From: Clostridiales bacterium
GTDB lineage: Bacteria; Bacillota; Clostridia; Peptostreptococcales; Anaerovoracaceae
Assembly (NCBI GenBank): GCA_012729355.1
Contig: JAAYDG010000015.1
Span: forward strand, 1-32,426
Direction of reading: 5' to 3'
Length of the DNA: 32,426 bases
In this document: positions 9,793 to 31,931 of the stretch, one piece after another
Layout of the letters: each line of letters begins with the position of its first letter
Position numbering within the stretch: position 1 is the stretch's first letter
The notes under the pieces: model-generated
The model's database searches: none
Seen by the model: the letters and a program-made list of their open reading frames with translations, nothing else
What the model was told of the DNA's origin: nothing
Program-made: the position numbers and the translations under genes

Positions 9793-10824
9793 ATGCAAAG
9801 AGCAGACGCCGGCCTCGGGTTCATCATGCAGTACGAAAACGTCGCTTGGTTTCAGGACGGAAAAGTGCGTATTTTGGACCGTCGCATCTATCCCATCCGC
9901 ACCGAATACGTTACGTGTCAGAAACACGAAGAAGTAGCACAAGCCATCGCCGACATGGTAACCCAGAGCGGAGGCCCCTATACCGCGGCCAGCATGGGGA
10001 TGGTTCTGGCCTGTTACGAATCCGAAGCGATGAAGGAAGCCGATCGACTCGCTTATTTAAAAAAAGCAGCCTATACCCTTTCCCATGCGAGACCGACCAC
10101 CTCCGCAAAAATGGAACGTTTCACCGGCAGCATCCTGAATGCCGCTGCGAAGGCCATGCGCGAAGGCGGCGACGTGGTGGACGCAGCCAGAGAAAAAGCT
10201 GTTCAAGATCTGAACGATCGATACAATCGCTTCGAACCTGTCGGTGAAATCATCGCTTCGTTGATCCCGAAAAACGGAACAATCCTCACACAATGCTGGG
10301 CGGAAACCGATATCGCCATGACTCTGCGTGCCTGCCGCAACCAAGGGAACGAGATCAAAGTCATCTGTGCGGAGACAAGGCCCTATTTTCAGGGGGCCCG
10401 TCTCACTGCCAGTTGCGCCCGCGATATGGGCTTCGACGTGACGGTCATCTGCGACAACATGCCCGCATACACGATGAAAATGAAGAAGATCGATCTGTTC
10501 ACTTCCGCAGCGGATGTGATCAGCTGCGACGGCTATGTCGTGAACAAAATCGGAACGTTCCAGATCGCACTGGCCGCCGATTACTGGGGTGTCCCCTACT
10601 ACGCCACGGGAAACCCCAACGCCGCGCACCCGACGATCGACACCGTCACCATCGAAGAACGGGATCCGGAGCTGGCGCTGCACGCCATGGATGTCAAACT
10701 GACCCTGGAGGGCGTCAAGGGATACTATCCGGCTTTCGACATCACACCGCCGGAACTGATCACCGGAATTGCCACGGTCAAAGGACTCATGAAACCCGAC
10801 GAACTTTCCGGCTATTTTGCGTAA
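9793..10824 (+). CDS. MtnA/eIF2B-alpha family sugar-1-phosphate isomerase, divergent
   Basis: This family converts aldose 1-phosphates such as methylthioribose 1-phosphate or 5-deoxyribose 1-phosphate to the ketose form. The 343-residue protein keeps the family core: TQCWAET with the catalytic-cysteine position C168, ETRPYFQGARLTAS, CDNMPAYTMK, and SAADVISCDGYVVNKIGT with D241 and N251-K252 in the catalytic-aspartate region. The N-terminal half differs: where standard MtnA has a VRGAPAIG-type substrate loop, this reads QSGGPYTAASMG. I therefore call family and reaction type, not substrate. It is 15 bases from a kinase of the MtnK family, which would supply a pentose 1-phosphate. No later salvage enzyme (aldolase, MtnB, MtnD) is nearby. 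Confidence 0.8.
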   Translation: MQRADAGLGFIMQYENVAWFQDGKVRILDRRIYPIRTEYVTCQKHEEVAQAIADMVTQSGGPYTAASMGMVLACYESEAMKEADRLAYLKKAAYTLSHARPTTSAKMERFTGSILNAAAKAMREGGDVVDAAREKAVQDLNDRYNRFEPVGEIIASLIPKNGTILTQCWAETDIAMTLRACRNQGNEIKVICAETRPYFQGARLTASCARDMGFDVTVICDNMPAYTMKMKKIDLFTSAADVISCDGYVVNKIGTFQIALAADYWGVPYYATGNPNAAHPTIDTVTIEERDPELALHAMDVKLTLEGVKGYYPAFDITPPELITGIATVKGLMKPDELSGYFA

Positions 10825-10839
10825 CAGGAGGAACCGAGC

Positions 10840-12027
10840 ATGTACACAGCTGAATCCATCATCCCTTATGCCGTCGATCGATTGCCGAAATTTTTTTCCA
10901 AGGATGCGAAATTGGTATCCGAAGAGATCGGCGACGGAAACATCAATTATGTGTATCGAATCAAAGATGAAACATCCGGAAAATCTTTGATCGTGAAACA
11001 TGCGGAAAACGAACTTCGCATCTACAAAGCCCGTTTTGTCGGGACGGACAGAAACCGGATCGAATACGAAGTGCTGTCGTTCCAACGTCGCCTTGCACCT
11101 GAATACATACCGGAGCTGTATCTCTACGACGATGAAAATAAAAACATCTTCATGGAAGATATGCAGGGATACGAGAACATGCGCTATGAGCTGTGTGCGC
11201 ATAAAATATTCCAATACGCGGCAGAACACCTGGCAGATTTCTGCGCCAAAGTATTGATCAATACAACGGATACGGTGGTCGGCGCTATGGACAAAAAGGA
11301 ACTGGTCAAACGATACATCAATGTGTATCCCTGCGAAATCACGGAACGGCATGTTCTGACAGAACCGTATCAGGATCTGGAAGAAAACGGTGTCTGTCCG
11401 GCTAACGACGCATTTATGCGGAAGATGATTTACGAAAACGACGCACTCAAAGCCCGGGTCGGGATCCTGAAGGATCGTTTTCAGACCAAGGCCCAGGCGC
11501 TGATTCACGGAGACTTGCACACAGGTTCGATTTTCGTGACTCCCGAGCGAACCTGCATCCTGGACCCTGAATTTGCTTTCTACGGACCCATCGGCTATGA
11601 CACCGGCAATTTTGTCGCCAACATGATCTTTGCCTATGCCAATGCCCGGGTCACCATGGAAGACGGGCCGGAAAAGACAGCGTATATCGATTGGATCCTT
11701 CGTACCATAGAATCTTTTACCGATCGATTCGTTTCGAAGTCTTTGCAGATCCTCAGAAATCAATCCAAAGATTTCATGATGCAATCCGAGGAGTTCTTCG
11801 CACTGTATATCAGAGACATCCTCGAAGATACCGCAGGGTACGCCGGAACCGAATTGATCCGCAGGATCGTGGGAAGTTCTGGCGTCCGGGATATCAAATC
11901 CATCCCGGACGAATCGGGCAAGGCCAGAGCTGAAATGATCTGCCTGAAGGCCGGAATCCACTTCATCATGCACCCGGATCGGTTTACAACCGGCACAGCG
12001 TATACGGAATATCTGCGCTCCCTATGA
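10840..12027 (+). CDS. mtnK: MtnK-family kinase (S-methyl-5-thioribose kinase-like)
   Basis: MtnK phosphorylates the C1 hydroxyl of methylthioribose, or of 5-deoxyribose-like sugars, with ATP. The 395-residue protein has the aminoglycoside-phosphotransferase fold with the MtnK versions of its motifs: EEIGDGNINYVYRI (glycine loop), LIVKHAE (ATP lysine), HGDLHTGSIFV (catalytic loop), DPEFAFYGPIGYDTG (metal site), and LIRRIVGSSGVRDIKSI near the C-terminus. The stretch after the ATP lysine (ELRIYKARFVGTDRNRIE) lacks the usual proline- and glutamate-rich substrate segment, so the sugar may not be methylthioribose. An AGGAGG site sits in the 15-base gap after the isomerase gene; the two form an operon closed by a strong terminator. 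Confidence 0.85.
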   Translation: MYTAESIIPYAVDRLPKFFSKDAKLVSEEIGDGNINYVYRIKDETSGKSLIVKHAENELRIYKARFVGTDRNRIEYEVLSFQRRLAPEYIPELYLYDDENKNIFMEDMQGYENMRYELCAHKIFQYAAEHLADFCAKVLINTTDTVVGAMDKKELVKRYINVYPCEITERHVLTEPYQDLEENGVCPANDAFMRKMIYENDALKARVGILKDRFQTKAQALIHGDLHTGSIFVTPERTCILDPEFAFYGPIGYDTGNFVANMIFAYANARVTMEDGPEKTAYIDWILRTIESFTDRFVSKSLQILRNQSKDFMMQSEEFFALYIRDILEDTAGYAGTELIRRIVGSSGVRDIKSIPDESGKARAEMICLKAGIHFIMHPDRFTTGTAYTEYLRSL

Positions 12028-12108: not shown

Positions 12109-12717
12109 TCACTGCTGCACCACATTATCCAGTGATGCCACGGCCTTTTCCACCTGCTCTGCCAGGTCCGATTCCGAGCCGGAATTGTCCAAGATCAGGT
12201 CAGCTCGAGCGATCTTTTCCTCTTCGCTCATCTGGAGCTTCATGCGGGCCAGCACTTCCTGCCGTCGACTGTGATCCCTCCGGACGACTCTTTTGAGGCG
12301 AATATCTTGCGGCGCGGTGACCAGCCATACCTCATCCGTATATTTATCCCATCCGGCTTCGTACAGCATCGGTACATCAAAGAAACATGCATCCACTTCT
12401 CCGGACATGCGCAAATGGTTGAAATATTCCAGCGCACGCACCAAGATCGCAGTCTGAACGAGTTCATTGAGCCTGCGCGTACCGTGCTGAGAGTCGAACG
12501 CAAGGTCGGCCAGTTTCTTTCGATCCATGGTGCCGTCTTCCCGTATGATTTCAATGCCGAACTCCCGTACCAACAACCGCAGCAGCGGCGAGCCCTTTTT
12601 ACAGACTTCGCGCGAGAGTTCATCTGCATCCACGACGGTGTATCCGCGCTCTTTCAACAACTCGGAAACAGTACTTTTTCCTGATCCGATGCCTCCGGTC
12701 AATCCAATAATTTTCAT
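12109..12717 (-). CDS. coaE: Dephospho-CoA kinase
   Basis: Catalyses the last step of coenzyme A synthesis, ATP-dependent phosphorylation of the 3'-hydroxyl of dephospho-CoA. The 202-residue protein starts with the P-loop GLTGGIGSGKST (about 5-16), followed by VVDADELSREV, the substrate-binding region. It also has the conserved FFDVPMLYEAG and the lid region RLKRVVRRDHS. A TAGGAG site precedes the ATG. It lies 8 bases after polA and is the last gene of the long minus-strand operon. The polA-coaE order is common in Bacillota, often with mutM between them, which is missing here. Confidence 0.96.
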   Translation of the reverse strand: MKIIGLTGGIGSGKSTVSELLKERGYTVVDADELSREVCKKGSPLLRLLVREFGIEIIREDGTMDRKKLADLAFDSQHGTRRLNELVQTAILVRALEYFNHLRMSGEVDACFFDVPMLYEAGWDKYTDEVWLVTAPQDIRLKRVVRRDHSRRQEVLARMKLQMSEEEKIARADLILDNSGSESDLAEQVEKAVASLDNVVQQ

Positions 12718-12725
12718 GTTGTCTC

Positions 12726-15410
12726 CTACTTCAGTAAGTACCAGTTTTCTCCTTCATTCAACGACACGTCCATTGTCACGGTCAGCTCTGCCGCCCCTTT
12801 CATAGAGTCTTCCAACAGTCTGCGCACTTTCTCCGTCTCCGTGCGATGCGCCTGTATGATCAGTTCGTCGTGGATTTGGAGAATCAGAGCCGACTTTGGG
12901 CAATCCCGCTTCAATGCATCGTAGGCCTTGATCATCGCCAGCTTAATGATATCTGCTGCGCTTCCCTGGATCGGTGTGTTCATAGCCAACCGCTCTCCCT
13001 GCTGCCGGACCGTAAAAGCGGATGCATTGATCTCCGGAATCGGGCGTTTGCGGCCAAACATCGTCGTTACATAGCCCTTCTCACGGCATTCCCTGATCGT
13101 CGTGTCCATGAAAGTTTTGACCTGCTCATACTTGGCAAAATACTCGTTGATATAGTGCTCGGCCTGTGCCCGGCTGATGGTCAGTTCGTTTGCCAGACGA
13201 AATCCACCCATACCGTAGATCACACCAAAATTCACCGCCTTGGCATCGGAACGCATGCCATCGGTCACTTGGTCTTCCGGAACGCCGAACACTTTCGATG
13301 CCGTAATCCGATGGACATCAAGCCCTTTGTTGAATCCTTCGATCAACGTGGGATCCTGAGACATGTGTGCCAGCACACGCAGTTCGATCTGCGAGTAATC
13401 TGCGCCGACCAGAATGTAGTCCTGACTTTCCGCAACAAAAGCTTTTCGAAGCTGTCTGCCCAACTCCTGTCGAATGGGGATGTTCTGCAAATTGGGCTCT
13501 GTACAGCTGATCCGGCCTGTGGCCGCCACCGTCTGCTGAAAGTGAGCATGGATCTTTCCGTTTTCATCGATGAGCGGGATCAATCCTTCCACATAGGTGC
13601 TGTTCAACTTGGTCAGCGTCCTGTACGAAAGCACCTTTTCCACGATCGGATGATCCGGCGCCAGCTTTTCCAGGATTTCCGCATGGGTGGCGAATCCGCG
13701 TTTTGTTTTCTTGGCGCCCGGGAGATTCAATTCTTCGAACAGGATCTGTCCCAGTTGTTGGGGAGAGTTGATATTGAATTCCCGTCCGGCCGATTCGTGG
13801 ATCTCTGTTTCCAGCGCATGGATGTCTTTTTTTAATCTGTCTCCGAATTCCTTCAGTGCGGCTTTGTCCACTTTCATGCCCTGCACTTCCATATCGGCAA
13901 GGATTCTGCATAAAGGAAATTCTATCGTATATAAGACTTCTTCCAGTTCCTGTTCACGAATCTGTTCTTTCAACATATCCTTCAGTTGATTCAACATGTG
14001 GAGCTTGGTCCCGACGGCCCGGAGACGTTCCCCTTCCGGATCATCCGCAAAGAAACCGATCTGCTCTTCCCGATCATCACTGCCCTCGTAGTCCTTGTGG
14101 AAGGTCTCGTACAACAGTGTTTTGAGACTGAGAGATCTCTTGTTGGGAGACAGAATGTACTGGGCGAGTGCGCAGTCGAACTTCGTGTTGAAGTTCCCGA
14201 TATCCACTCCTTGCGACATCAGCACATAGTAAACCCGCTGAAGATCGAATCCGATGAGATCCAGCGATTTTCCGGAAAGGACTTCCCGCAGTAATTCCGG
14301 AAGCTGTGACGTGCCGGGCATGTAGACGCACGTTCCGTCAACCAACCATTCGATACCGTCTAACGATGGCTTTCGCGTATGGCTGTCATCACTTTGCACG
14401 TCAATGACCACATCCTTTGCATTGTCCAGTTCCTTCAGCCATTTGCGCATATCTTCGTCCTGATCGATTCGCCGGGCAGGAGGAAATGGCGTATCGTTCG
14501 GCGCACGGTCTTCTTCGGATTCGTACATCCCCTCTTTTTCCTGTTCCATCAGGTTTTTCATGTGCGTTCTGAATTCCAGGCGGCGATACAATTCGATCAG
14601 TTCATGGATATTCGGCGACTGCATGCGGCATTCTTCCAATGTGAATGACAGTGGAACCCGGGTAAAGATCGTAGCCAGGCGCTTGCTCATCAGTGCAACG
14701 GTTGCATGTTCCTGCATTTTCTCCCGAAGCTTGGGACTTTCGATCTGATCGATATGGTCCAGCAGATTTTCGATGCTTCCGAACTGGCGGATCAGCTTGA
14801 CGGCAGTCTTCTCTCCCACGCCGGGCACACCCGGAATATTGTCGGAGGGATCTCCCCGCAAGCCTTTGTAGTCGATAAACTGAATGTGGCCGAAGCCGAA
14901 TTCTTCCTGCATGGCCTCTTCGTCGTAGGAGGCAAATTCGGAAATTCCTTTTTTCGTGATGATGACCGTAGTTTGATCATTGGCCAGCTGAAGCGCGTCT
15001 TTATCTCCTGTGATCACGTAGGCCTGGATGCCTTCCTCTTCCGATTTCTTTGCAACGGTCCCGATGATATCGTCCGCTTCGTAGCCATCCAGTTCATACA
15101 TCCTGATGTTCATGGCAGAGAGAATATCTTTCAGCAGCGGAAGCTGCATTGCCAGCTCGGGAGGCATTTTCTGACGACCCGCTTTGTATGCATCGTATTC
15201 CTGATGACGAAACGTGGGTGCCTTTCTGTCCCATGCGACTAACATATGGGTAGGTTCATAGTCGTTTCGTATCTTCTGCAGCATACTTAAAAACCCGTAA
15301 ATACCTTGAGTATACAGGCCTTCTTTGGTGATCATCGGACGCTGGATTGCATAATATGCCCGGTTCACCAGGCTGTTGCCGTCGATGATTACAATTCGTT
15401 CTCGCTCCAA
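12726..15410 (-). CDS. polA: DNA polymerase I, TTG start
   Basis: DNA repair and Okazaki-fragment maturation polymerase. From the TTG the protein is 894 residues. About 1-290 is the 5'-3' exonuclease (IDGNSLVNRAYYA, ITGDKDALQL, GDPSDNIPGVPGVGEKTA). About 310-490 is a 3'-5' exonuclease-like domain without its acidic metal ligands (VIDVQSDD at D337, where an active site would read DxE). The rest is the polymerase, with DYSQIELRVLAHMS, VNFGVIYGMGGFRL and QIHDELI. An upstream ATG exists, but AGGAG lies 6 bases before this TTG and the protein then starts MERERIVIIDGN, like the family. The start overlaps the anti-sigma gene by 22 bases. Confidence 0.95.
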   Translation of the reverse strand: MERERIVIIDGNSLVNRAYYAIQRPMITKEGLYTQGIYGFLSMLQKIRNDYEPTHMLVAWDRKAPTFRHQEYDAYKAGRQKMPPELAMQLPLLKDILSAMNIRMYELDGYEADDIIGTVAKKSEEEGIQAYVITGDKDALQLANDQTTVIITKKGISEFASYDEEAMQEEFGFGHIQFIDYKGLRGDPSDNIPGVPGVGEKTAVKLIRQFGSIENLLDHIDQIESPKLREKMQEHATVALMSKRLATIFTRVPLSFTLEECRMQSPNIHELIELYRRLEFRTHMKNLMEQEKEGMYESEEDRAPNDTPFPPARRIDQDEDMRKWLKELDNAKDVVIDVQSDDSHTRKPSLDGIEWLVDGTCVYMPGTSQLPELLREVLSGKSLDLIGFDLQRVYYVLMSQGVDIGNFNTKFDCALAQYILSPNKRSLSLKTLLYETFHKDYEGSDDREEQIGFFADDPEGERLRAVGTKLHMLNQLKDMLKEQIREQELEEVLYTIEFPLCRILADMEVQGMKVDKAALKEFGDRLKKDIHALETEIHESAGREFNINSPQQLGQILFEELNLPGAKKTKRGFATHAEILEKLAPDHPIVEKVLSYRTLTKLNSTYVEGLIPLIDENGKIHAHFQQTVAATGRISCTEPNLQNIPIRQELGRQLRKAFVAESQDYILVGADYSQIELRVLAHMSQDPTLIEGFNKGLDVHRITASKVFGVPEDQVTDGMRSDAKAVNFGVIYGMGGFRLANELTISRAQAEHYINEYFAKYEQVKTFMDTTIRECREKGYVTTMFGRKRPIPEINASAFTVRQQGERLAMNTPIQGSAADIIKLAMIKAYDALKRDCPKSALILQIHDELIIQAHRTETEKVRRLLEDSMKGAAELTVTMDVSLNEGENWYLLK

Positions 15411-16147
15411 TTGAAACTCCTGACGTTCGAATAGGATAGCCATCCGGGGTCCGATGCGTCGTATCGCAGCGTACGGCGTTCGTCCTCATAGAAGTATATC
15501 ACAAAAGTCGCACTTCCGTCTTCCTCCGGGATACACTCCACCAATTCGTATCCGTAGCCCAAATCGTTTTCAGTGAGCCAATCGTTGAATATCGGGTCCT
15601 GCAGCGCCCGGTCGAAAGCGTCCGGTCCTTTCTCCGTTTCGCACTCTACATAGCGCAGTGCGTCGACTGTCTCCTGCGTGTCCGTGTATCCGTCTCCGTC
15701 CGATTGCTGTTCAGGCGGCAATTCGCCGACCGAGGAAGCGCCATAGTCCGGTTCTTCTCCTTCGGCCTCCTTTATCCCACTCGTATGTGATAAATGTTCA
15801 TCCTTCGCCTGCTGCGTATCGATCCCTCCCTGGTTCATGACCAGCGCGGAACCTGCGAATACCAGCAGCACGGCGGCCACACTGACCCACTGCCTGTGTT
15901 TTGAGCGGTTTCGATTTCGGGCCGATGCAATGATCTCCGTTACATCCGGGATGACTGCCGTCGGAACGTCCACCTCCGGTTCGGCGCGCAGCAAATCCGT
16001 GATCTGCTCGAATTCACGAAGCAGTTCACGGCATTTGCTGCAGGATCTCAGATGCTGCGTCAACGCTTCCTGCAGTGCAGGGTTCAACGTGCCGTCCCGA
16101 TAATCCTGAAACATCGATGTGTAATTTTGGCAATCCTGATTCAACAT
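15389..16147 (-). CDS. Membrane-anchored zinc-finger anti-sigma factor
   Basis: Probably holds the ECF sigma factor encoded directly upstream in an inactive state. Of 252 residues, 1-50 form an anti-sigma zinc domain with H32-x3-C36-x2-C39 (HLRSCSKC). One transmembrane helix is predicted at about 86-104 (WVSVAAVLLVFAGSALVM). The remaining 150 residues should lie outside the cell. That part is acidic and contains SDGDGYTDTQE (149-159), which resembles a calcium-binding loop, and then a segment rich in aromatic and acidic residues that I do not recognise (DPIFNDWLTENDLGYGYELV, YFYEDERRTLRY). AAGGAT precedes the start. It ends inside polA. What signal it senses is not visible. Confidence 0.85.
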   Translation of the reverse strand: MLNQDCQNYTSMFQDYRDGTLNPALQEALTQHLRSCSKCRELLREFEQITDLLRAEPEVDVPTAVIPDVTEIIASARNRNRSKHRQWVSVAAVLLVFAGSALVMNQGGIDTQQAKDEHLSHTSGIKEAEGEEPDYGASSVGELPPEQQSDGDGYTDTQETVDALRYVECETEKGPDAFDRALQDPIFNDWLTENDLGYGYELVECIPEEDGSATFVIYFYEDERRTLRYDASDPGWLSYSNVRSFNWSENEL

Positions 16148-17759: not shown

Positions 17760-18356
17760 TTACTGAAGTTCCCTTTCTACTTGTTTCATCAAATCTCGGG
17801 CCCGCTTGATCCCCTCCGGGATCAGCACATCCAGAAGCATTTCGAATTCTTTCCGTACGTTCGGTGCGCCGATGTATCGGAGGTTCACCAAGATATTGAT
17901 GCGGCTCGTTTCCAGCGCTGCAGCAGCACAGCAAGCTCCGACGCCTACGTCGCTCAAAACATTCTTGTTGCCCTTCTCTTTGAATACATTCAGGATGTCC
18001 AAGAGCGTAACGATTTCGTGGATTGTCCGTGCAGCCGGTTCCGAAGCATTGGCGTATGCCTGGTCGTTCGCACCGGTTTTCCACGCTTTCATCAACGCTT
18101 CGAAGGCAATCGCATCCTCATCGATCAGCTGCAGCAGACGATTCCGAAGTTCATTGGCCTTTTGGATCAGCTTTTCACACTCGAGTGAAAACGCTTCGTA
18201 TCCTTTTTTTTCGACAGTCAGGTTCCCTACCATGGAAGCCAGACAAGCGGAGAGCACACCCAGCAAAGCACCGACGCCGCCGCCGCCGGGGATCGGTGCC
18301 GCAGAAGACAGCGCATCCGTCCACTCGCTGATTGTCATGCTCTGTGCTTTGTTCAT
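17760..18356 (-). CDS. fchA: Methenyltetrahydrofolate cyclohydrolase (cyclodeaminase/FTCD_C family)
   Basis: Converts 5,10-methenyl-THF to 10-formyl-THF, or acts as formimino-THF cyclodeaminase, in one-carbon metabolism. The 198-residue, mostly helical protein matches the FTCD C-terminal family: APIPGGGGVGALLGVLSACLASMVGNLT, then DEDAIAFEALMKAW, and ACCAAAALETSRINILVNLRYI. GGAG lies 7 bases before the ATG. The protein stands alone and is not fused to a formiminotransferase. That fits the FchA type found in anaerobes using the folate C1 pathway, but no hutI or ftcD neighbours help decide. It is the first gene after the 6S RNA terminator, only 15 bases away. Confidence 0.9.
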   Translation of the reverse strand: MNKAQSMTISEWTDALSSAAPIPGGGGVGALLGVLSACLASMVGNLTVEKKGYEAFSLECEKLIQKANELRNRLLQLIDEDAIAFEALMKAWKTGANDQAYANASEPAARTIHEIVTLLDILNVFKEKGNKNVLSDVGVGACCAAAALETSRINILVNLRYIGAPNVRKEFEMLLDVLIPEGIKRARDLMKQVERELQ

Positions 18357-18371
18357 GAATCCGCTCCGCTC

Positions 18372-18546
18372 AAAAAAATCCCAAAGTGCCGTCAGACCCT
18401 AATTCACGCCCTATCATCCGATAGGTGGGTTACCTGTTACCGTTTTCTGCCTTCCACTCTGCAGAGGCCTGACATAGTCGGATAAACGCGGAGTCCCGAA
18501 AAATTAGTGTAGGTTGAATTAACGGTCTTAACGAACACCCCAGGAT
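18372..18546 (-). ncRNA. ssrS: 6S RNA
   Basis: 6S RNA mimics an open promoter and binds the housekeeping RNA polymerase holoenzyme. The roughly 175-base candidate lies in a gap without an open frame. Its ends can pair: UCCUGGGGUG at the 5' side (18536-18545) with CACUUUGGGA at the 3' side (18379-18388), ten pairs with several G-U. Seven U residues (18372-18378) follow, as in a terminator. The sequence just inside (GUGUUCGUUAAGACCGUU, CCUACACU, GGGACUCCGC) agrees with the conserved 6S closing-stem and bulge-flank motifs as I remember them, including GUUCG and CUCCGC shared with E. coli. It sits 7 bases after the yebC stop. No strong promoter is visible, so processing from a yebC transcript is possible. 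Confidence 0.85.
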
Positions 18547-18553
18547 AGTTGTT

Positions 18554-19282
18554 TTACTCTTCGTACAGATCGATCGTACAATTTGTATAGACTTTTTGCA
18601 CGTCGTCATCTTCTTCCAGTGTTTCGATCATTTTCTTTAAATTTTTGATATCTTCTTCCGAAGTGGGCGTCGATTCCATCGAGGGAATTTGATCCACATC
18701 TGCTTCCAGAGGATTCAGCCCCGCTTCCTTGAAACTTTCTCCGACTGAATCGAATTGCTCCGGCGCGCAGAGAACTTCGAAGCTGTCATCGTATACAAGC
18801 ACATCGTCGGCTCCGGCTTCCAACGCGACCTCCATCAATTCCTCTTCCGTGATCCCGTCGGCCTTGTCGAAGACGAAAACTCCTTTTCGGTCGAACATAT
18901 AAGAAACGCATCCCGGAACACCCAGATTTCCGCCGTATTTATCAAAAGCATGTTTCACCGAAGCAGTTGTTCGGTTTCTGTTATCGGTGAGCACATCCAC
19001 CACGACGGCAACGCCTCCGGCACCGTATCCTTCGAAGCTTCCTGTTTCGTAGGTTTCGCCCTCCAGTTCACCGGTACCCTTTTTAATGGCACGGGTGATG
19101 TTGTCGTTGGGCATATTGATGCTTTTCGCTTTATCGATCGCATGCTTCAAAGATACATTGTACTCCGGGTCGCCTCCGCTTTTTGCGGCTACCGTAATGG
19201 CTCTTGCGTACTTCGTAAAAACTGCTGCTCTCTTTGAATCCTGCGAGGCTTTCCGCCCAGCGATCGTGCCGTGCCTGCCCAA
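18554..19282 (-). CDS. YebC/TACO1-family protein, TTG start
   Basis: YebC/TACO1 proteins were described as transcription regulators and more recently as translation factors that help ribosomes through difficult sequences. The 242-residue protein begins MGRHGTIAGRKASQDSKRAAVFTK and carries IKKGTGELEGETYE, FEGYGAGGVAVVVDVLTDNRNRT and the acidic C-terminal part typical of the family. The open frame runs 23 codons further upstream, but that stretch (with CSHLCYYLG) is unlike the family. TTG at 19282 has AAGGGAG 9 bases upstream and gives the expected N-terminus, so I use it. The gene has a consensus promoter and is followed by the 6S RNA. Confidence 0.92.
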   Translation of the reverse strand: MGRHGTIAGRKASQDSKRAAVFTKYARAITVAAKSGGDPEYNVSLKHAIDKAKSINMPNDNITRAIKKGTGELEGETYETGSFEGYGAGGVAVVVDVLTDNRNRTTASVKHAFDKYGGNLGVPGCVSYMFDRKGVFVFDKADGITEEELMEVALEAGADDVLVYDDSFEVLCAPEQFDSVGESFKEAGLNPLEADVDQIPSMESTPTSEEDIKNLKKMIETLEEDDDVQKVYTNCTIDLYEE

Positions 19283-19312
19283 TGGTATCAGCTCCCTTCT
19301 CGTTGTGCCTAA

Positions 19313-19341
19313 ATAATAGCATAAATGAGAACAAATTTCAA
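19313..19341 (-). promoter_or_regulatory. Promoter of yebC (and perhaps 6S RNA)
   Basis: TTGAAA (19336-19341) and TATTAT (19313-19318) with a 17-base spacer and a TG just before the -10. The transcript would start near 19306, about 25 bases before the TTG codon. Confidence 0.85.
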
Positions 19342-19368
19342 GAACCGACACCGTTGACGCAAACGAAC

Positions 19369-31541: not shown

Positions 31542-31555
31542 GGCTGCAAAACAAA

Positions 31556-31931
31556 ATGAGTAATCCTATAAGCCGGGTTCTGTATTCGGCAATCATCTAT
31601 CTAGGCGCATCGTTGCCGATGCGCTCATGCGACCTACCTTCCGGGAAGCGACGGGCCGCCGCCTTTCAGGCACTTTGCGCTTTGCGCAGTTACCTCCCTG
31701 CTTGGTCTTGCTCCGAATGGGGTTTGCATTGACGCGAGATCGTTACCGATCCGCCGGTGAGCTCTTACCTCGCCTTTTCACCCTTACCGCGAAATGCGGC
31801 GGTTGTTTTCTGTTGCACTTTCCTTAGGGTCACCCCCACCGGACGTTATCCGGCATCCTCGCCCTGCGGAGCCCGGACTTTCCTCATGAAACGAAATTCC
31901 TTTCGCCCATGCGATTGCCTGGATTACTCAT
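31556..31931 (-). ncRNA. rnpB: RNase P RNA, class A-like
   Basis: Catalytic RNA that trims the 5' leader of tRNA precursors. About 376 bases. The 5' part contains GAGGAAAGTCCGGGCTCC, the universally conserved core. The 3' part contains CAGAACCCGGCTTAT, which binds the tRNA CCA end through its GGU-type loop, after AGATAGATGATTGCCG. Conserved segments GAAAGTGCAACAGAAA and GTAAGAGCTCACC lie between them. The ends form an 11-bp perfect P1 helix, AUGAGUAAUCC / GGAUUACUCAU. The 5' end is only 6 bases after the nif3-family stop codon, so its promoter must lie inside that gene; TACAAT near 31934-31939 is a possible -10. Open frames inside this RNA are not genes. Confidence 0.97.

What the first reader, a model, noticed from the sequence alone, without database searches (positions are those of the whole stretch)
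17760..18546. 6S RNA directly upstream of a folate gene, echoing ssrS-ygfA of gamma-proteobacteria
The sequence shows a 6S-like RNA with a U7 tail only 15 bases before fchA, a methenyl-THF cyclohydrolase. In E. coli and relatives, 6S RNA is co-transcribed with ygfA, a 5-formyl-THF cyclo-ligase. The two enzymes are unrelated in sequence but act on the same folate branch. A similar pairing in a Clostridia-like genome could be chance, or it could reflect a shared logic linking 6S levels to one-carbon supply.
Basis: partly seen in the sequence, partly recalled or inferred. Interest (0 to 1): 0.65.

Follow-up and report, generated by a model that had tools for sequence, protein, structure and literature searches.

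The report
6S RNA beside inherited folate gene
A standard bacterial 6S RNA (a small RNA that restrains RNA polymerase) lies 15 bases before a folate-enzyme-like gene; about a fifth of the sampled relatives share a folate neighbour, but their gene tree points to one old rearrangement inherited by descent rather than a repeatedly evolved folate circuit.

Summary
Rfam RF00013 matches 18374-18549 (-) at 61.2 bits (cut-off 46.4). A U7 run follows, then 15 bases with a Shine-Dalgarno, then the ATG of an FTCD_C-family gene (18356-17760). "fchA" is too firm a name: the protein scores 124 bits against a 275-bit FchA cut-off and lacks about 12 residues that the other compared relatives have.

The pairing is not confined to this genome. 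In the window's family, 21 of 105 6S loci have fhs and/or fchA within 3.5 kb downstream. Outside it, none of 59 6S loci do; those often show aspS-6S-tcdA. No ygfA (5-FCL) homologue lies near any of 162 loci.

All 16 6S-linked FTCD_C proteins fall in one 99%-supported clade, and forcing them into a single clade is not rejected (p-AU 0.90). So one fhs-fchA-folD operon most likely landed behind 6S in this lineage and was inherited, with genes later lost. polA sits 9-106 nt behind 6S in 11 relatives, so tight packing is not folate-specific.

Verdict: ordinary 6S RNA in a lineage-specific inherited neighbourhood that resembles ssrS-ygfA without being it. Co-transcription through 6S is likely in this genus. 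A folate-specific regulatory logic is not supported, but not excluded.

The parts
18554..19351 (-). yebC (TACO1/YebC family); orthologues start at MGRHGTIAGRK, so the true start is probably near 19282
   Evidence: PF01709 4.8e-56, NF001030 above cut-off; nearest labelled upstream gene of 6S in 66 of 105 family loci
18374..18549 (-). 6S (SsrS) RNA gene
   Evidence: RF00013 61.2 bits, full length; family alignment with covariation
18372..18378 (-). U7 run at the 3' end of 6S; with the closing stem a likely intrinsic terminator (inferred)
   Evidence: sequence; at least 5 T in 8 at this position in 96 of 103 family 6S loci, against 13% at random positions
18357..18371 (-). 15-nt spacer GAGCGGAGCGGATTC with Shine-Dalgarno GGAG; no room for a promoter
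   Evidence: sequence
17760..18356 (-). FTCD_C-family gene (FchA-like methenyl-THF cyclohydrolase / cyclodeaminase), divergent
   Evidence: PF04961 148.7 bits; below the FchA equivalog cut-off; only FTCD_C in the genome
16772..17758 (-). Peptidase_S58 (DmpA-like), next gene of the inherited block
   Evidence: PF03576 3.1e-34; same order in relatives such as L103 and L136
16177..16902 (-). ECF sigma factor of the block
   Evidence: PF08281/PF04542 and TIGR02937; same order in relatives
15389..16147 (-). zf-HC2 putative anti-sigma factor of the block
   Evidence: PF13490 1.4e-6
12726..15443 (-). polA, distal conserved flank of the block
   Evidence: NF004397 1027 bits; directly behind 6S in 11 relatives
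12109..12717 (-). coaE, distal conserved flank
   Evidence: PF01121 5.9e-50

Best explanation
This is an ordinary trans-acting 6S RNA gene in a neighbourhood inherited within its family: yebC - 6S - (fhs-fchA-folD) - (formate/nitrite transporter) - (peptide transporter) - S58 peptidase - ECF sigma/anti-sigma - polA - coaE, from which different lineages have lost different genes. The folate operon most likely became the 6S neighbour once, in an ancestor of a subgroup of the family. The window's genus keeps only fchA next to 6S. Shown: the 6S match, the gene order, the spacing and the gene tree. Inferred: because only 4 nt separate yebC from 6S and 15 nt separate 6S from fchA, the folate-family gene is transcribed through 6S, by leaky termination at the closing stem plus U7 or from a promoter inside 6S or yebC. 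Any coupling of its level to 6S is then a by-product of packing.
For: 6S hit. Gene order across 105 family loci. All 16 6S-linked FTCD_C in one 24-row clade, SH-aLRT 99; holding the 16 as a single clade is not rejected and gives a higher likelihood, p-AU 0.897. In six of the eight other genomes of that clade 6S itself now has a different neighbour, an opposite-strand PHP gene. On the YebC tree all 19 folate-linked loci fall in one half of the family, interleaved with polA and ECF neighbours as deletions would give. Gaps are not special to folate: median 118 nt for folate genes, 51.5 nt for other same-strand genes, 26 nt for polA. Outside the family 0 of 59 6S loci have Fhs, FTCD_C or 5-FCL downstream. 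Of 80 named FTCD_C loci only one, belonging to this family, has 6S upstream.
Against: fhs stays directly behind 6S in G049 and G068 although yebC is about 11 kb and 4 kb away, so the 6S-folate bond has outlasted the 6S-yebC bond in two lineages. Formate/nitrite transporter genes follow 6S in further lineages and their tree does not require one origin. In G007 fhs-fchA sits on the other, upstream side of 6S. The YebC tree is weakly supported at depth and rooted at the midpoint only.
Confidence: 0.78

Rival explanations
1. Functional coupling: read-through from 6S delivers one-carbon enzymes in step with growth phase, a circuit convergent with ssrS-ygfA, and selection keeps the pair together.
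For: Precedent: E. coli 6S is co-transcribed with ygfA, and folD rises in 6S-deficient cells, from which the authors of PMC2848244 proposed a purine / one-carbon link; ygfA lies next to 6S in many proteobacteria and some Firmicutes (PMC9130861; PMC4064990). Here fhs, fchA or formate/nitrite transporter genes lie within 3.5 kb downstream in 37 of 105 family loci, and spacing makes co-transcription likely in the window's genus.
Against: One origin fits the folate operon. polA, peptide transporter and S58 genes take the same place. Most relatives keep fhs-fchA-folD elsewhere. In relatives the 6S-fhs gap is 70-322 nt, long enough for a separate promoter.
Confidence: 0.15
2. The structure is a cis-acting leader (attenuator) of fchA rather than a trans-acting 6S RNA.
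For: The closing stem plus U7 sits 15 nt before the start codon and could terminate transcription.
Against: The same RNA with the same conserved features precedes polA, transporters, peptidases and convergent genes. It is a full-length match to the 6S model, and many relatives have a strong -10 just upstream: 58 of 101 match at least 5 of 6, against 6.4% in controls.
Confidence: 0.04
3. The adjacency is a coincidence of this one genome.
For: No 6S beside FTCD_C in nearly all of 80 named FTCD_C loci.
Against: Shared by three members of the genus, and folate genes follow 6S in 21 of 105 family loci.
Confidence: 0.03

Closest known systems
6S RNA (SsrS; Rfam RF00013)
   Same: Full-length model match above the gathering score; conserved bubble flanks and closing stem, supported by covariation in the family.
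   Different: Location between yebC and one-carbon genes; in other sampled Clostridia the commonest labelled context is aspS-6S-tcdA.
ssrS-ygfA operon of proteobacteria (6S + 5-formyl-THF cyclo-ligase)
   Same: 6S directly upstream, same strand, of a gene of the folate one-carbon branch; co-transcription plausible.
   Different: The gene is FTCD_C, not 5-FCL; the 5-FCL homologue is on another contig; the arrangement arose separately inside one clostridial family.
fhs-fchA-folD one-carbon operon of Clostridia
   Same: fchA in the window belongs to the clade of fchA genes that includes those from such operons behind 6S.
   Different: In the window genome fhs is not found and folD is on another contig.

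Membership tests
6S RNA (RF00013) | covariance-model match above gathering score | tested here: met
   61.2 vs 46.4 bits, model positions 1-187
6S RNA (RF00013) | conserved rod-like fold with closing stem and central bubble, supported by compensatory changes | tested here: met
   44 consensus pairs, 25 with double-sided compensation over 40 family sequences; window copy folds at z -2.37
6S RNA (RF00013) | binds sigma-A/70 RNA polymerase holoenzyme and templates pRNA | not testable with these tools
   needs RNA-protein experiments
ssrS-ygfA operon | downstream gene is 5-formyl-THF cyclo-ligase (PF01812) | tested here: not met
   downstream gene is PF04961; the PF01812 gene is on contig C51; no 5-FCL near any of 162 6S loci
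ssrS-ygfA operon | 6S and downstream gene co-transcribed | not testable with these tools
   inferred from the 15-nt spacing only; needs transcript data
FchA (methenyl-THF cyclohydrolase) | NCBIfam equivalog cut-off NF045657 | tested here: not met
   124.2 vs 275 bits; a relative from G007 also falls below, at 156.6
FTCD_C superfamily | PF04961 gathering score | tested here: met
   148.7 vs 24.5 bits
fhs-fchA-folD operon | fchA flanked by fhs and folD | tested here: not met
   fchA is flanked by 6S and an S58 peptidase; fhs not detected in the assembly, folD elsewhere

The most novel reading that the evidence does not exclude
6S RNA in this family works as the leader of a one-carbon transcription unit: read-through past the 6S end sets fhs/fchA/folD levels by growth phase, a second, independently evolved 6S-folate pairing alongside ssrS-ygfA.
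Probability: 0.13. Interest if true: 0.65.

Novelty: new member of a known kind. Interest (0 to 1): 0.3.

Why it matters
Why 6S RNA sits before a folate gene in proteobacteria is an open question. A second lineage with 6S ahead of a different folate operon could be used to test whether the pairing means anything. Here the evidence favours one old rearrangement kept by descent, which warns against reading function from shared neighbours without a tree. The family still offers a natural experiment: close relatives with 6S followed by fhs, fchA, a formate/nitrite transporter or polA.

Tried and rejected
A single-genome coincidence: rejected by the family survey. Repeated convergent gain of folate genes: not required by the FTCD_C tree and AU test. 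Linkage to yebC rather than 6S: weakened by G049 and G068, where 6S is far from yebC but still directly before fhs. THF or ZTP riboswitch near the 6S-folate loci: none among 15 loci, although ZTP and THF riboswitches appear at other FTCD_C loci. A genome-collection scan with the window protein alone found no relative; a scan with an alignment did. Two genomes first scored as lacking 6S (G011, G068) do have it, at 70.4 and 62.8 bits, because the many-genome search uses stricter filters; 6S counts here are therefore lower bounds. My first ORF calls sometimes took an antisense frame over yebC; labels were redone with tblastn. The main papers on 6S gene context (Wehner 2014) and ssrS-ygfA termination (Chae 2011) are not held.

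Full report
Observation. Rfam RF00013 (6S) matches window 18374-18549 on the minus strand over the whole model, at 61.2 bits against a gathering score of 46.4. It is the only 6S found in the genome. Upstream, 6S starts 4 nt after the yebC stop codon. The window copy folds better than shuffles (z -2.37). An alignment of 40 family 6S RNAs gives 44 consensus pairs, 25 of them with compensatory changes. The downstream protein is FTCD_C (PF04961, 148.7 bits) but scores only 124 against a 275-bit FchA equivalog cut-off. Members of the window's genus also lack about 12 residues that the other compared proteins have. I therefore call it FchA-like.

Is it only here? No. I surveyed 6S loci in the window's family (149 genomes), order and class, and fetched their surroundings. 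In the family, yebC is the nearest labelled upstream gene in 66 of 105 loci. The first labelled downstream gene varies: formate/nitrite transporter 12, Fhs 11, PolA 11, FTCD_C 8, OPT transporter 8. In 21 of 105 loci Fhs and/or FTCD_C lie within 3.5 kb downstream on the same strand. Two genomes without a 6S hit in the many-genome search turned out to have 6S before FTCD_C (G011) and before Fhs (G068) when searched directly. The family is probably Anaerovoracaceae: one contig (G135:C54, 21,001 bases) matches in length a named Clostridiales record, and Emergencia and Mogibacterium are among the protein's named relatives. This name is an inference.

Outside the family. None of 59 6S loci from the rest of the order and class have Fhs, FTCD_C or 5-FCL downstream in the 1.5 kb fetched. 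27 of them have tcdA downstream, usually with aspS upstream; glyA lies within 1.5 kb downstream in 13. Among 80 named FTCD_C loci across Clostridia and other phyla, one (of this family) has 6S upstream, and one Fusicatenibacter locus has 6S 3.3 kb downstream beyond other genes. The linkage therefore belongs, as far as sampled, to one family.

One origin or many? I fetched FTCD_C genes that lie away from 6S in about 80 family genomes. They mostly sit in fhs-fchA-folD operons elsewhere or stand alone. In the tree of 94 FTCD_C proteins, all 16 that sit behind 6S are in one clade of 24 with SH-aLRT 99. Forcing the 16 into one clade gives a higher likelihood than the quick free tree, p-AU 0.897. 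Of the eight clade members not linked to 6S, six have 6S next to an opposite-strand PHP gene, as if the linkage broke in that sublineage. On a YebC tree the 19 folate-linked loci all fall in one half of the family, mixed with polA-next and ECF-next loci. This fits one arrival of the operon behind 6S followed by deletions. The block order in the window (6S, fchA, S58, ECF sigma, anti-sigma, polA, coaE) matches what deletion of fhs and folD from the fuller block would leave. In this assembly fhs is not detected and folD and the 5-FCL homologue are on other contigs; two genus members have fhs elsewhere.

Is the spacing special? No. The gap from 6S to the next same-strand labelled gene has median 118 nt for folate genes, 51.5 nt for other genes and 26 nt for polA. 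The U-run at the 6S 3' end occurs in 96 of 103 family loci whatever gene follows. In 58 of 101 family loci a strong -10 lies just before 6S (control 6.4%); in the window it does not (3 of 6), where 6S abuts yebC. The scan of the window region also found no promoter-like site before 6S on its strand. So in the window's genus the likely transcription unit is yebC-6S-fchA-S58, with fchA read through 6S. That is inference from spacing, not a measured transcript.

Relation to what is known. In E. coli and many proteobacteria 6S is followed by and co-transcribed with ygfA (5-FCL), and papers state that this neighbour also occurs in some Firmicutes (PMC9130861; PMC7641849; PMC4064990). PMC2848244 reports folD raised in 6S-deficient E. 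coli and proposes a purine / one-carbon link. The present case is not a member of the ssrS-ygfA arrangement: the gene family differs and the tree points to its own origin. I found no paper in the held library describing 6S next to fhs/fchA, but the main survey of 6S gene context could not be read.

Verdict. The strongest points on the other side are that fhs stays directly behind 6S in two genomes where yebC lies 4 and 11 kb away, and that formate/nitrite transporter genes follow 6S in further lineages without needing one origin. These leave a modest chance of real coupling.

Noticed in passing
window 31553-31930 (-): Bacterial RNase P class A RNA, 291 bits.
   Followed up: no
window 17760-18356 (-): The FTCD_C protein of this genus lacks about 12 residues (a conserved stretch with Ala and Pro) that the other compared relatives have, and sits on a long branch, suggesting changed or relaxed function.
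   Followed up: partly
genome G000: No formate-THF ligase (fhs) detected in a 97.5% complete assembly, although 138 of 149 family genomes have it.
   Followed up: partly
L125, L130, L147 and eight other family loci: 6S lies 9-106 nt before polA in 11 family genomes, so DNA polymerase I may be read through from 6S there.
   Followed up: no
L032-L088 (order and class loci): aspS-6S-tcdA synteny, with glyA (a folate enzyme) within 1.5 kb downstream in 13 of 59 loci.
   Followed up: no
L048, L057, L134: FTCD_C lies upstream of 6S on the same strand: about 1 kb away in two loci of another family, and 125 nt away in G007, where polA follows 6S.
   Followed up: no
G260:C41:57334-57704: Two 6S matches in tandem, about 10 bp apart, in a genome of the same order.
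   Followed up: no
window 9793-12027 (+): Methionine-salvage pair: S-methyl-5-thioribose-1-phosphate isomerase and S-methyl-5-thioribose kinase.
   Followed up: no
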